Under the pieces are notes generated by a model. That model saw nothing but the letters and a program-made list of their open reading frames with translations, had not been told where the DNA came from and searched no databases. Positions 38,516 through 42,810 of a DNA stretch of 64,000 bases are shown here, one piece after another; positions within the stretch are counted from its first letter, which is position 1; each line of letters begins with the position of its first letter. The stretch is taken from assembly GCF_035946055.1 (NCBI RefSeq), contig NZ_CP108364.1, positions 5,332,001 to 5,396,000 of the forward strand. The letters run 5' to 3'. The position numbers and the translations under genes are program-made. Source of the DNA: Streptomyces sp. NBC_01341. Lineage in GTDB: Bacteria > Actinomycetota > Actinomycetes > Streptomycetales > Streptomycetaceae.

Positions 38516-39079
38516 ATGCCACCGACGAATCGCGCCGACGCGCTGAGAAACCGTGCCCTGCTGCTGGCGGCGGCCGGTGAGGTCATCGCCGAACACGGCA
38601 CCAACGCGTCACTTCGAGACGTCGCCCGCCGGGCCGGCGTGGGCATCGGCACGCTCTATCGCCATTTCCCCAACCGTGAAGTACTCCTTGAGGCGCTGCT
38701 CGACGCGAACTTCGACGCTCTGCGCGCCCGCGCCGACGGCCTGCTCGCATCCCCCGACCCGGAGGCGGCGCTCCTTGCGTGGCTCGAGGAAATGGCGGCC
38801 GGATCGGCGACGTACCAGGGTCTCCCCGAGTCGATCATGGACGCCCTCGCCAACGAGGAGTCGGGGCTGCACGAGGCATGCGACCGGATGAAGTCCGCCG
38901 GCGGCCGACTGCTCGAACGGGCGCAGGAAGCCGGCTCCATCCGGCCCGAACTCACCATCCGCGCGGTCATCGCGGTCGCTCTCGGCCTCTCGTGGGCCGC
39001 CCAGTACGCCTCCGACCTGTCCGAACAGGTCGGCCCACTGCTCCGCGCGGCGATCGTGGCATCCGGCGCGCGGGAGTGA
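38516..39079 (+). CDS. TetR-family repressor of the adjacent quinone reductase
   Basis: A 187-residue TetR regulator. The helix-turn-helix SLRDVARRAGVGIGTLYRHF followed by PNREVLLEALL lies at about residues 31-62. The C-terminal domain is of the common SbtR/TetR_C_33-like type. The divergent reductase and the three near-identical palindromes between them suggest a xenobiotic- or quinone-responsive switch (inference from layout). The ATG is supported by GAGGTC about eight bases upstream and by the operator ending just before it. Confidence 0.88.
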   Translation: MPPTNRADALRNRALLLAAAGEVIAEHGTNASLRDVARRAGVGIGTLYRHFPNREVLLEALLDANFDALRARADGLLASPDPEAALLAWLEEMAAGSATYQGLPESIMDALANEESGLHEACDRMKSAGGRLLERAQEAGSIRPELTIRAVIAVALGLSWAAQYASDLSEQVGPLLRAAIVASGARE

Positions 39080-39231: not shown

Positions 39232-40101
39232 ATGAGCACTCTGCAAGCCATCACGCTCGACCAGGTGGTCGACACGGACCGCTACCCCCTGTCGGACCCG
39301 GAGAGTCCCGAATGCGAGGCGGTGGTCGCGCGGGCGCGCAGCGAACTGGACGCGGTCGGCTGCACCGTACTCCCCGACTTCATCCGGCCCGCACTCCACG
39401 AGGTCCTGCGACAGGAGTGCGCCGCCATCGCCCCGCAGGCGTACTTCGACGTGGAGACGGTGAACGTCTACAACATCGATGTGGACGCCGATCTGCCCGA
39501 GGACCACCCCGGACGGCGCACCTTCCAGCGCGGCAACGCCTTCGTCGCCCGCGACCGCGTGCCCGCGGACGCCCTCATCGGCCGGCTCTACGGCCACGAG
39601 CTGTTCCAGCGCTTCGTGGCCGGCTGCTTCGCGCTGCCCCGCCTGTACGAGCTCGCCGACCCGCTGTCGGGACTCGTGCTCAACGTCGTGCGCCCGGGAA
39701 TGGAGCACCCCTGGCATTTCGACACCAACGAGTACACGGTCAGCATGCTGACCCAGGAGGCCGAGAGCGGCGGCGACTTCGAGTACTGCCCGCACATCAG
39801 GTCCGCCGACGACGAACGGTTCGACGACGTCCGGGACGTCCTGGACGGCCGCGGCGGGCCGATGACCCGCCGTCTCCCGCTGAGGCCGGGCGACCTGCAG
39901 CTGTTCATGGGCCGCTATTCGCTGCACCGGGTCAGCCCCGTGCGGGGCGGCCGGGCGCGGCACAGCGCGATCTTCGCCTACAGCGAGCGCCCCGGCGTCA
40001 TCGGGAGCGTGGCCCGCACCAGGCAGCTCTTCGGCCGCGTGCTGCCCGAGCACCGTGCCGCGGAGGGCCGGGCGGTGCGGGGGGACCGGCTGCTGGACTG
40101 A
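39232..40101 (+). CDS. BesD-type Fe(II)/2-oxoglutarate-dependent oxygenase
   Basis: A 289-residue enzyme with the facial triad of Fe(II)/2OG oxygenases: HFD at residues 162-164 in PWHFDTNEYTVSMLTQ, the distal histidine at about 232 in GRYSLHRVSPV, and the 2OG-binding arginine at about 243. The HxDTNEY signature and following GGDFEYCPHIRS resemble the family that includes the amino-acid halogenase BesD (from memory). Because the metal-binding aspartate is present rather than glycine, hydroxylation and not halogenation is predicted. It is the first gene of a compact operon, 52 bp before the methyltransferase. The substrate, perhaps a free amino acid, is inference. Confidence 0.8.
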   Translation: MSTLQAITLDQVVDTDRYPLSDPESPECEAVVARARSELDAVGCTVLPDFIRPALHEVLRQECAAIAPQAYFDVETVNVYNIDVDADLPEDHPGRRTFQRGNAFVARDRVPADALIGRLYGHELFQRFVAGCFALPRLYELADPLSGLVLNVVRPGMEHPWHFDTNEYTVSMLTQEAESGGDFEYCPHIRSADDERFDDVRDVLDGRGGPMTRRLPLRPGDLQLFMGRYSLHRVSPVRGGRARHSAIFAYSERPGVIGSVARTRQLFGRVLPEHRAAEGRAVRGDRLLD

Positions 40102-40153
40102 CGGACTTCTCCAGACCACGGCCCAGCCACGCGATCCACCAAGGAGAAGCCCC

Positions 40154-40960
40154 TTGCGCCTCGACGCGACCGGAAAAGTCTCGCTGGACCACATCTACAC
40201 CGCACCCGATCCCCGGACGTACTTCCGGGAACTGCGCCCCCTCGGCTACTGCGTGCCCCAACTGGCCAAGCCCTACTTCGAGAAGCTCGTCAAGGAGTAC
40301 CGGGAGACCGAACAGGTCACCGCCCCACGGGTGCTGGACATCGGCTGCTCGTACGGGATCAACGCGGCCCTGCTGAAGTACGACCTCACGATGGACGAGC
40401 TCTACGCACGCTACGACGGCACCGGCCCCACCACCCGCGAAGGGCTCCTGGCGCGCGACCAGGACCTCTCCCGCTCCCGCAGCCCCGCGAACGGCCTGCG
40501 CTTCACCGGCCTGGACGCCTCCACCGGGGCCCTGGCCTACGCCCGCGAGGCCGGCTTCCTCGACGACACCGTCCACGCCGACCTGGAGACGTACGACCCC
40601 ACCCCGGAGCAGCGCGCCCGGCTCGCCGGCACCGACCTGGTGATCTCGACCGGATGCATCGGCTACGTCACCGAACGCACGCTCGTCCGTGTCGTCCGCG
40701 CGCAGGACGGCCGACTCCCGTGGATGGCGCACTTCGTCCTGCGCATGTTCCCCTTCGCCCCCGTCGAGCAGGCCCTGGCGGAACTGGGCTACCGCACGAT
40801 CACGGTCGACGGGGTCTTCAGGCAGCGGCGGTTCGCCGGACCCCAGGAACAGCGACGGGTCCTGGACGGCATGGCCGCGGCCGAGGTGGACGCGAGCGGA
40901 CTGGAGGAGGATGGCTGGCTCTACGCCCAGCTCCACCTCTCCACGCCCCGGAACCGGTAG
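40154..40960 (+). CDS. Class I SAM-dependent methyltransferase
   Basis: A 268-residue methyltransferase with the SAM motif VLDIGCSYGINAALL at about 60-74 and a second acidic motif FTGLDAST. The C-terminal half (HFVLRMFPFAPVEQALAELG) does not place it in a named subfamily, so O-, N- or C-methylation is open. The start is a TTG with AAGGAG seven bases upstream; no ATG or GTG fits, and the longer frame runs back into the oxygenase gene. It is the middle gene of the operon, 38 bp before the acyltransferase. Confidence 0.8.
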   Translation: MRLDATGKVSLDHIYTAPDPRTYFRELRPLGYCVPQLAKPYFEKLVKEYRETEQVTAPRVLDIGCSYGINAALLKYDLTMDELYARYDGTGPTTREGLLARDQDLSRSRSPANGLRFTGLDASTGALAYAREAGFLDDTVHADLETYDPTPEQRARLAGTDLVISTGCIGYVTERTLVRVVRAQDGRLPWMAHFVLRMFPFAPVEQALAELGYRTITVDGVFRQRRFAGPQEQRRVLDGMAAAEVDASGLEEDGWLYAQLHLSTPRNR

Positions 40961-40998
40961 ATCCCATTCCCGCCCTACTCACCGAGAAGAGAGCCGCA

Positions 40999-42810
40999 TT
41001 GAACGTCAGTCAGGAAGCAGCAGCCGGAGCGACCTTCGCCCGTGAGGGCAGTCTGCCGAAGGTGCCGCTGCCCACACTGGAGGCGAGCTGTGAGAGGTTC
41101 CTCGCCTGGTGCGCCCCCTTGCTGACCGAGGAGGAGCGGGCGGCCACCGAGGCCGAGGTCGCCGCCTTCCTGCGGCCCGGCGGCCCCGGCAGGACGCTGC
41201 ACGCGGCGCTGGAGGAGTACGACGCGACGGAGGGGGTGCACAGCTGGCTCGACACCTTCTGGCCGTACCGCTACCTCGGCCGCCGGGACCGCATCGCTCT
41301 CAACGCCAACTTCTTCTTCCTCTTCCAGGACACCGGCCAGGGACAGCTCGACCGCGCCGCCGGGCTCGTCGCCGGGGCGCTCCACTACAAGCGGCGCCTC
41401 GACGAGGGGCTCGTCGCGCCGGTGGAACAGCGCGGGGTGCCGCAGTCCATGGTGCAGAACAAGTACCTCTTCTCCACCACGCGCATCCCCGGAGTGCCGC
41501 TGGACACCGTGCGCGCCCCGTACAGCGAGCAGGCGCCCGGGCCCTCCGCGGCCCGGCACATCGTCGTGTTCTTCCGCGGCACCATGTTCCGCCTGGACGT
41601 CATCGGCCCCGACGGCGTCCCGCACAGCCTCGACGAGATCGAAGGGGGGCTGCGCGCGGTGACCAAGGCCGACGTCCACACGGCGGACGAGGACCGGGCA
41701 GGTCACCTCACCACCATGGCACGGGCCGAGTGGGCGGCCACGCGGCAGGAACTGCTGGCCGGGGACCCGGCCAACGCCAGGACGCTGGACGACATCGAGA
41801 CCGCCCTCTTCTGCGTCTGCCTGGAGGACTTCGCACCCGGGGACACCCAGCAGACCTGCGACGAACTGCTGCACGGAGACCGGGGAAACCGGTGGTTCGA
41901 CAAGGCCGTCTCCTTCGTCGTCTACGCGGACGGCCGGGCCGGCATCAACGTCGAGCACTGCGAGCTGGACGGGACGACCATCCTCAGCTTCACCGACGCG
42001 CTGCTCGGCACCCCGCCCGAGGAGCACTCCCGCCGCTCCGGCGCCCGCCCCCAGGGGCAGCCGGTCCCGCAGCCGCTCACCTTCGGGCTGGACGCGCCCC
42101 TGAGGGCCCGGGTACGCACCGCCGCGGACGCGTTCGCCGCGTACGGGCGGGACACCGCCACCACCACCGTGTCCTTCGGGGACTTCGGCAGCACCGCGGC
42201 CAAGGCGCTCGGGGTGTCCCCGGACGCGTTCGTGCAGACCGCGTACCAGTTGGCCCACCAGCGCGCCAAGGGGCACTTGGGGGCGACGTACGAGTCCATC
42301 GCCACCCGGCAGTTCCGCCACGGCCGAACCGAGGCGATGCGGGTGGTGACCCCCGAGATGCCGGCCTTCGTCGCGGCGATGGAGGACCCCCTGGCGGACC
42401 GCGACGCCCGCCGCGCCGCGTTCCGGGCCGCCGCGGCGGCGCACGTCGCCCGGGCGAAGGAGTGCCAGGCCGGCGCCGCGCCCGAGCAGCACCTCTGGGA
42501 ACTGGAACTGATCCAGCGCCGCCGGGGCGAGGAGCTCGGCGTCGGCGAACAGCCCTCCTTGTACCGCTCCCCGGGCTGGCTGACCATGCGGGACGACTAC
42601 CTGAGCACGAGCTCGGCACCGTCCGAGAACATCCAGTACTTCGGCTTCGGCTCCACGAGCAGCCGCTGCATCGGCGTGGCCTACGTCCTGCTCCCGCAGC
42701 GGTTCAACCTCTACCTGAGCACCCCGCGCACGGTCGCCGACCAGATGCACGCCTTCGCGGACCGGCTTCGCGAGGCGGTCAGGGAACTGCGGGACCTCCT
42801 GGCGGACTGA
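40999..42810 (+). CDS. Carnitine/choline O-acyltransferase family protein
   Basis: A 603-residue protein of the carnitine acyltransferase family, which moves acyl groups between CoA and the hydroxyl of carnitine-like compounds. Family features are the N-terminal LPKVPLPTLEASCERFLAWC, the catalytic histidine at about residue 320 in NVEHCELDGTT, and the C-terminal substrate-binding segment LSTSSAPSENIQYFGFG with the STS-type motif (about 536-553). Length matches the family. It starts with TTG, with GAGAG upstream. Such enzymes are common in eukaryotes and uncommon in bacteria. Its place behind an oxygenase and a methyltransferase suggests the acyl acceptor is made by those enzymes. Confidence 0.85.
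   Translation: MNVSQEAAAGATFAREGSLPKVPLPTLEASCERFLAWCAPLLTEEERAATEAEVAAFLRPGGPGRTLHAALEEYDATEGVHSWLDTFWPYRYLGRRDRIALNANFFFLFQDTGQGQLDRAAGLVAGALHYKRRLDEGLVAPVEQRGVPQSMVQNKYLFSTTRIPGVPLDTVRAPYSEQAPGPSAARHIVVFFRGTMFRLDVIGPDGVPHSLDEIEGGLRAVTKADVHTADEDRAGHLTTMARAEWAATRQELLAGDPANARTLDDIETALFCVCLEDFAPGDTQQTCDELLHGDRGNRWFDKAVSFVVYADGRAGINVEHCELDGTTILSFTDALLGTPPEEHSRRSGARPQGQPVPQPLTFGLDAPLRARVRTAADAFAAYGRDTATTTVSFGDFGSTAAKALGVSPDAFVQTAYQLAHQRAKGHLGATYESIATRQFRHGRTEAMRVVTPEMPAFVAAMEDPLADRDARRAAFRAAAAAHVARAKECQAGAAPEQHLWELELIQRRRGEELGVGEQPSLYRSPGWLTMRDDYLSTSSAPSENIQYFGFGSTSSRCIGVAYVLLPQRFNLYLSTPRTVADQMHAFADRLREAVRELRDLLAD

What the first reader, a model, noticed from the sequence alone, without database searches (positions are those of the whole stretch)
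39232..42810. Compact oxygenase-methyltransferase-carnitine acyltransferase operon
Three genes spaced 52 and 38 bp apart encode a BesD-type Fe(II)/2OG oxygenase with an intact HxD triad, a class I methyltransferase and a bacterial carnitine/choline O-acyltransferase with its catalytic histidine. Seen: motifs and layout. Known: carnitine-type acyltransferases acylate the hydroxyl of betaine alcohols, and BesD relatives act on free amino acids. Inferred: hydroxylation, methylation and O-acylation of an amino acid or amine, giving an acylcarnitine-like metabolite. I know of no described pathway with this exact set. No NRPS, PKS or transporter is nearby.
Basis: partly seen in the sequence, partly recalled or inferred. 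Interest (0 to 1): 0.75.

Follow-up and report, generated by a model that had tools for sequence, protein, structure and literature searches.

The report
Acylcarnitine-like pathway operon in actinobacteria
Three neighbouring genes, inherited as a unit in dozens of actinobacteria, look like a small pathway that hydroxylates, methylates and acylates a small charged molecule to make an undescribed relative of acylcarnitine.

Summary
In detail: an Fe(II)/2OG oxygenase (OX), a class I methyltransferase (MT) and a carnitine/choline-type acyltransferase (CAT) lie 52 and 38 bp apart. They form a real unit. In 295 genomes of the host genus, OX and CAT occur in the same 32; one more has only a divergent CAT. 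They are adjacent on one strand in 63 of 63 genomes examined, Nocardia and Labedaea included. MT lies between them in 46; in all 16 MT-less genomes of the genus an MT homologue lies elsewhere (background 54 of 263), and one genome fuses MT to CAT. CAT keeps its catalytic residues, but the arginine that binds carnitine's carboxylate is glutamine in 62 of 62, so ordinary carnitine is an unlikely acceptor. OX has the BesD fold with the hydroxylase HxD motif, but its sister clade sits in M24-linked operons, 9 of 15 with a glycine-betaine-type binding protein. That points to a small onium zwitterion rather than a free amino acid. Best reading: a dedicated module making an O-acylated, hydroxylated, methylated onium compound distinct from acylcarnitine. 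Substrate, step order and biosynthesis versus detoxification are inferred. The papers searched gave no description of the set.

The parts
39232..40101 (+). OX: Fe(II)/2-oxoglutarate oxygenase, BesD/HalD fold with hydroxylase HxD triad
   Evidence: PF23169 38.8 bits, cut-off 26; AlphaFold2 mean pLDDT 92.5; Z 20-21 to HalB, HalA, BesD, HalD and the hydroxylase homologue of BesD 7jsd; H162, D164, H232, R243 in 63 of 63
39715..39723 (+). OX H162-F163-D164, the HxD facial-triad codons (third ligand H232 at 39925-39927; 2OG-binding R243 at 39958-39960; roles by family knowledge)
40154..40960 (+). MT: class I SAM-dependent methyltransferase, own subfamily; target atom unknown
   Evidence: sub-threshold Methyltransf_11/12/23/25; generic class I fold; cis in 46 of 63, fused to CAT in locus L060
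40999..42810 (+). CAT: carnitine/choline O-acyltransferase family enzyme
   Evidence: PF00755, E 7e-159; human and mouse CrAT, E 7e-63 to 9e-61
41956..41958 (+). CAT catalytic His320 (= CrAT H343)
   Evidence: H in 62 of 62
42487..42489 (+). CAT Gln497 at the position of the carnitine-carboxylate-binding Arg (CrAT R518)
   Evidence: Q in 62 of 62 OX-linked CATs; R in the two CATs not linked to OX

Best explanation
The three genes are one self-contained enzymatic module. MT methylates a small, common metabolite to an onium-bearing (N- or S-methylated) compound. OX hydroxylates it at an unactivated carbon with Fe(II)/2OG/O2. CAT transfers a (probably short) acyl group from acyl-CoA to the new hydroxyl. 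The product would be an acylcarnitine-like ester whose alcohol is not carnitine. Shown: gene set, intact catalytic residues, co-inheritance, an MT-family gene in cis or in trans in every genome of the genus that was tested. Inferred from residues and relatives: onium-type substrate, non-carnitine acceptor, short acyl chain. Inferred from logic only: order MT then OX then CAT, and that the purpose is biosynthesis.
For: Unit: OX and CAT co-occur 32/0/1/262 in 295 genomes (Fisher p 5e-42) and are adjacent on one strand in 63 of 63. The block also sits in six of 31 surroundings that share no other gene family with the loci compared, so it moves by itself. MT: cis in 46 of 63; MT stop and CAT start overlap by 4 bp in 11 of 23 MT-bearing loci; one 902-aa MT-CAT fusion without internal stop; an MT homologue elsewhere in 7 of 7 MT-less genomes of the genus sample and then in 9 of 9 further ones, against 54 of 263 OX-less genomes (full-scoring control 0 of 19). 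In the one genome of the genus sample with a non-OX CAT, an MT homologue lies about 5 kb from it. CAT: H320, K402, D409, Y431, E432, T444, S536, F550 kept, Q497 for Arg in 62 of 62. OX: trio clade (SH-aLRT 99) joined (95) to a 15-row clade of M24-linked operons (91), 9 of whose 15 rows have an OpuAC betaine-type binding-protein gene in the stretch fetched (Pfam run on one representative of each protein cluster).
Against: MT is missing in cis in 17 of 63. MT homologues occur in 54 genomes without a strong OX, so MT has a life of its own. MT losses are clustered (at least 4, by parsimony 7 changes), so 16 of 16 is not 16 independent events. OX's sister operons look catabolic. The MT fold match is generic and does not give the target atom. 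No transporter or precursor gene travels with the block. The roles of CrAT Y452, T465, R518, S552, F566 and M564 are recalled except where PMC11050330 and PMC11852590 support them. OX H159 matches what I recall as a BesD amino-acid contact.
Confidence: 0.5

Rival explanations
1. One reading: OX hydroxylates a free amino acid or amine as BesD relatives do, MT then N- or O-methylates it, and CAT acylates the hydroxyl.
For: OX fold is closest to HalB, HalA, BesD and the hydroxylase homologue of BesD solved with lysine; Pfam HalD; H159 is invariant in the trio (63 of 63) at the position of the His just before the HxG motif of HalB, which I recall as a substrate contact in BesD.
Against: Identity only 14-17%. 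The Asp that follows HxG in HalB and HalD is T165 here. The nearest relatives by tree are linked to M24 enzymes and betaine-type binding proteins.
Confidence: 0.22
2. A catabolic or detoxifying module: OX breaks down or tames a methylated zwitterion taken up from the environment, and CAT buffers or exports the product as an ester (or releases CoA), with MT acting as a side or salvage enzyme.
For: The sister OX clade lies in operons with an M24 enzyme and, in 9 of 15, an OpuAC binding protein; other relatives pair with HIBADH-like dehydrogenases (in 38 of 80 loci) or with a formaldehyde-activating enzyme.
Against: No importer, M24 or HIBADH gene travels with the trio. An acyltransferase and a methyltransferase consume acyl-CoA and SAM, unusual for catabolism. 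MT appears needed.
Confidence: 0.18
3. Ordinary carnitine: MT and OX together make carnitine (for example from GABA via gamma-butyrobetaine) and CAT makes acetylcarnitine, a bacterial de novo route.
For: CAT family and most CrAT active-site residues are kept; hydroxylation of a betaine by a 2OG enzyme is the last step of known carnitine synthesis (established knowledge).
Against: The carboxylate-binding Arg is Gln in 62 of 62, while the two bacterial CATs outside the trio that were found keep Arg.
Confidence: 0.1

Closest known systems
Carnitine O-acetyltransferase and choline O-acetyltransferase (Pfam PF00755; PDB 1nm8, 1t7q, 2fy2)
   Same: Full-length homology, catalytic His, CoA-side K423, D430 and E453 equivalents, residues at Y452, T465, S552 and F566 equivalents
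   Different: Arg518 (carnitine) or Asn (choline enzyme, recalled) is Gln497 in 62 of 62 OX-linked CATs; CrAT K419 equivalent not kept (S398); F548 where CrAT has Met564
BesD/HalA-E radical halogenases and the lysine hydroxylase homologue of BesD (PDB 6nie, 7u6h, 7u6j, 7jsd)
   Same: Same fold (Z 20-21 over 224-239 residues); Pfam HalD above cut-off; HxD as expected for a hydroxylase
   Different: 14-17% identity; Thr in place of Asp after the motif; separate clade with betaine-associated genes
LysR-OX-M24-OpuA operons of Halomonas, Chromohalobacter, Salinicola, Burkholderia and relatives (found here, uncharacterised)
   Same: Sister clade of the trio oxygenase, 40-51% identical to OX
   Different: No MT or CAT detected; betaine-type binding protein plus DddP-like M24 enzyme instead, which suggests breakdown
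Eukaryotic/bacterial carnitine biosynthesis (N-trimethylation, 2OG hydroxylations) followed by acylation
   Same: The same chemical logic: methylated onium, C-H hydroxylation by a 2OG oxygenase, O-acylation
   Different: A different oxygenase family, no aldolase or aldehyde dehydrogenase step in the block, acceptor pocket not set for carnitine's carboxylate (compared from general knowledge)

Membership tests
Choline/carnitine acyltransferase family (PF00755) | Full-length profile match over the curated cut-off | tested here: met
   530.5 bits, profile 1-574 of 574, cut-off 22.3
Choline/carnitine acyltransferase family (PF00755) | Catalytic His (CrAT H343) and CoA-side K423, D430, E453 (residues as in PMC11852590) | tested here: met
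   H320, K402, D409, E432 in 62 of 62. The further lysine K419 named there is not kept: S398 in the window protein, variable in the family
Carnitine-specific acyltransferase | Arg that binds the carnitine carboxylate (CrAT R518; Arg of the DRHLL motif) | tested here: not met
   Q497 in 62 of 62 OX-linked CATs; Arg in the CATs of G069 and G430. Title of Cronin 1997 seen in the reference list of PMC11050330
Choline acetyltransferase | Asn and Val at CrAT R518 and T465 (recalled) | tested here: not met
   Q497 and T444 in 62 of 62
BesD/HalD family, Pfam PF23169 | Profile match over the curated cut-off and same fold | tested here: met
   38.8 against 26 bits; Z 20-21 to HalB, HalA, BesD, HalD
Radical halogenase (BesD type) | HxG/A halide-binding motif in place of HxD | tested here: not met
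   HxD in 63 of 63 trio members and in 160 of 160 OX rows, repeats of a genome included
Free-amino-acid hydroxylase of BesD type | Turnover of a free amino acid | not testable with these tools
   No assay; residue and context evidence is mixed
Class I SAM-dependent methyltransferase | Rossmann-type SAM fold with GxG-like motif I | tested here: met
   Pfam sub-threshold, model pLDDT 81, Z 10-12 to many class I enzymes, motif LDIGCSYG
N-methyltransferase making a betaine | Kinship with a known N-methyltransferase | tested here: inconclusive
   C-, N-, O- and S-methyltransferases tie in Z
Dedicated operon (functional unit) | Co-inheritance and adjacency in independent surroundings | tested here: met
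   joint transcription itself was not tested

The most novel reading that the evidence does not exclude
Actinobacteria have a dedicated, horizontally moving three-gene route to a class of small acyl-onium esters that are not acylcarnitines or acetylcholine. It was built by recruiting a betaine-degradation oxygenase and an animal-type acyltransferase, and the product could be a signal or a stress solute.
Probability: 0.3. Interest if true: 0.8.

Novelty: new variant of a known kind. Interest (0 to 1): 0.62.

Why it matters
Carnitine/choline-type acyltransferases are very rare in the actinobacterial sample (4 of 396 genomes), and in the host genus 32 of 33 belong to this block. The conserved Arg-to-Gln change makes a sharp, cheap prediction about the acceptor. 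If the product is a new acyl-onium ester, it would be a small metabolite class made by three enzymes in about one in nine species of this genus (32 of 295), easy to miss by cluster mining because no NRPS or PKS is involved. The analysis also exposes an uncharacterised oxygenase family, apparently onium-linked, spread over Proteobacteria and Actinobacteria.

Tried and rejected
MT as a chance neighbour: rejected because of the fusion, the overlaps and the trans homologue in 16 of 16. A bias (at most 8 candidates scored per genome) was checked by scoring all candidates in 19 of the genomes that had no hit; none gained one (0 of 19; the same query found its target in 10 of 10 genomes). OX as halogenase: rejected by HxD in 63 of 63. 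Plain carnitine metabolism: lowered by Q497. The OX-linked M24 enzymes being DMSP lyases: not accepted, 239-428 bits for the three tested against the NCBIfam cut-off of 600. Target atom of MT from fold comparison: no answer. Neighbours of the trans MT homologues (36 stretches fetched): several different neighbourhoods, one recurring in 8 loci with molybdenum-hydroxylase-like genes (named by eye), no consistent partner, so no substrate hint. Regulation: no TTA codon in the three genes; the TetR gene upstream in the window is not shared by the loci compared. Plasmids: no CAT match in 72,556 records; a search with the flank did not settle the host genus. NCBIfam gave no name for the trio, PADLOC only a weak generic 2OG match to OX. 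Literature for the set: searches gave nothing describing it. For these only listings were seen, and one search listed 10 of 29 papers, none of the 10 with the term 'carnitine acyltransferase'. Papers on BesD, PMC10187165 and PMC13244439, were searched for named residues without success.
Full report
1. What is there. Pfam gives HalD for OX (38.8 bits, cut-off 26), only sub-threshold methyltransferase models for MT, and Carn_acyltransf over the whole CAT (530.5 bits). NCBIfam has no name for any of the three. The host genus is not named by the tools; from genome size, GC content and the number of species I take it to be Streptomyces (inference).

2. It is one unit. In 295 genomes of the genus, 36 have any OX match at E 0.001, of which 32 are strong (E below 1e-135) and 4 weak. 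PF00755 is found in 33. The 32 strong OX genomes are all among these 33; the remaining one, G069, has a divergent CAT (E 6e-92). Fisher p is 5e-42. In the 396-genome phylum sample (17 OX matches at E 1e-5) PF00755 occurs in 4 genomes: the window's, two with the full trio (G343, G522) and G430 with a divergent CAT and no OX match. In the 293-genome order sample 39 had an OX match, 38 of them strong. I examined 63 distinct genomes with the strong OX: all 32 of the genus sample, 24 of the 25 new ones of the order sample (G779 was not fetched; its MT directly follows OX), G522 and G343, and five named ones (Labedaea rhizosphaerae, Nocardia macrotermitis, N. elegans, N. nova, N. aobensis). OX and CAT are adjacent on the same strand in 63 of 63, with MT between in 46.

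3. Surroundings. Nineteen of 31 compared loci share the glutamine-synthetase neighbourhood of the window. Six (L048, L049, L050, L053, L059, L060) have the block among genes that share no family with any other compared locus. No other gene travels with it in all of them. The three genes are under purifying selection (dN/dS 0.16-0.27 in nine comparisons).

4. MT is needed, in cis or in trans. MT is absent from the block in 17 of 63. In the genus sample every one of the 32 OX-CAT genomes has an MT-family gene somewhere: 25 in cis, 7 of 7 MT-less ones elsewhere (best E 6e-64 or lower), against 54 of the 263 genomes without a strong OX (Fisher p 2e-5). I then tested nine further MT-less genomes and found it in 9 of 9 (E 7e-68 to 2e-63). 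Of the 25 cis genomes 3 showed a second copy (G024, G212, G284). One search scored at most 8 candidates per genome; a full-scoring repeat on 19 of the hit-less genomes found none. Caution: on the OX+CAT tree the MT label needs 7 changes, of which well-supported branches force 4, so the genomes are not independent; for 4 to 6 lineages the chance value is about 0.002 to 7e-5. In G121 MT and CAT are one open reading frame of 902 aa with no internal stop. In G244 MT is in two pieces. In G069, the non-OX CAT lies in a cluster with NRPS-like genes (named by eye) and, about 5 kb away, an MT homologue 38% identical. G113 has an MT of nearly the trio type (E 8e-113) but no OX or CAT.

5. CAT pocket. 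In the alignment with human CrAT, the catalytic H343 is H320. Lys423, Asp430 and Glu453, named in PMC11852590 (passages and section 5 part 1 read), are K402, D409, E432; Lys419, also named there, is S398 and not kept. The Arg of the DRHLL motif is Q497. With the 21-residue offset stated in PMC11852590, that Arg is CrAT R518. That this Arg binds the carnitine carboxylate rests on the title of Cronin 1997, seen in the reference list of PMC11050330 together with a passage on the same motif (passages only), and on recall. Q497 is found in 62 of 62 OX-linked CATs (the contig of the 63rd ends before it); the CATs of G069 and G430 have Arg. The residues I recall as holding the trimethylammonium group and the rest of the acceptor (Y452, T465, S552, F566) are kept as Y431, T444, S536, F550. 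The residue at CrAT M564, which I recall as limiting chain length, is F548; this suggests a short acyl group. So the acceptor is probably an onium alcohol that lacks, or places differently, carnitine's carboxylate.

6. OX. The AlphaFold2 model (mean pLDDT 92.5, 54-sequence alignment) is closest to HalB, HalA, BesD, HalD and a hydroxylase homologue of BesD solved with lysine (Z 20-21, 224-239 residues, 14-17% identity). HxD, H232 and R243 are in 63 of 63, so hydroxylation rather than halogenation is expected. Among the 80 loci, an HIBADH-like dehydrogenase is in 38, a DddP-like M24 enzyme in 24 and an OpuAC binding protein in 15 (Pfam of representatives). The trio is in four Nocardia, and OX-CAT without MT in Labedaea. 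In an 80-row tree (quick method) the 23 trio OX form one clade (SH-aLRT 99) that joins (95) a clade of 15 rows (91), 14 of them M24-linked. Nine of those 15 have an OpuAC gene in the stretch fetched; two of the 15, L102 and L105, were not scanned for it. In more distant relatives the OX gene lies next to a Fae (formaldehyde-activating enzyme) gene in seven loci and overlaps it in six (Pfam run on two of the seven). All this points to methylated onium zwitterions as the substrate class. Against it, H159, invariant in the trio but F, Q, L or Y in many relatives, is what HalB has at this place.

7. MT. The model (pLDDT 81, five sequences) matches class I methyltransferases of all kinds with tied Z 10-12. 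The trans homologues sit in several different neighbourhoods without a consistent partner, which suggests that MT acts on a common metabolite and does not need a private precursor pathway (inference).

8. Mechanism. Proposed: MT methylates, OX hydroxylates, CAT O-acylates. The gene set and co-inheritance are shown; substrate class is inferred from relatives and pocket residues; order and purpose are not shown. Rivals are listed with their tests.

9. Known or new. Paper searches for the set (listings only) gave no description of it; subscription journals are mostly not held, so this is weak evidence of absence. I file it as a new variant of a known kind: known enzyme families in a conserved combination that I found nowhere described.

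Noticed in passing
L148:3897-16912 (genome G069): The only CAT of the genus sample without OX lies in a cluster with NRPS-like, aminotransferase, two further methyltransferase and transporter genes (named by eye), plus an MT homologue about 5 kb away. Its CAT keeps Arg at the carnitine position.
   Followed up: partly
L060:6933-9641 (genome G121): MT and CAT are fused into one 902-aa open reading frame with a linker.
   Followed up: yes
L207, L210, L211, L214, L218, L221, L226, L231 and others: Uncharacterised operons LysR - OX relative - DddP-like M24 enzyme - glycine-betaine-type binding protein in Halomonas, Chromohalobacter, Salinicola, Burkholderia and relatives; probably breakdown of an unknown betaine.
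   Followed up: partly
L106, L107, L108, L110, L111, L112, L114: Distant OX relatives next to a formaldehyde-activating enzyme (Fae) gene, overlapping it in six of the seven, which suggests an oxidative demethylase that releases formaldehyde. Pfam confirmed Fae in L106 and L112; the others were read by eye.
   Followed up: partly
38 of the 80 loci L153-L232, e.g. L153, L154, L162, L164, L166: An OX relative with a 3-hydroxyisobutyrate-dehydrogenase-like gene nearby, mostly in Acidimicrobiales metagenome genomes.
   Followed up: no
L065, L066, L067, L068: Four genomes share a block with several ATP-grasp-like proteins, a desaturase-like protein, a transporter, a methyltransferase and a BesD-like HxD oxygenase; it looks like a small-peptide biosynthetic cluster (named by eye).
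   Followed up: no
L149:9001-10704 (genome G430): A divergent CAT with Arg at the carnitine position, next to a peptide-type ABC transporter (named by eye), in another actinobacterial family.
   Followed up: no
L259 (genome G113, contig C90:1607-2428): An MT close to the trio type (E 8e-113) in a genome with no OX or CAT found; possibly a relic or an assembly gap.
   Followed up: no
window 38516-39079: TetR-family regulator gene (named by eye) 152 bp upstream of the trio on the same strand; not shared by the other loci compared.
   Followed up: partly
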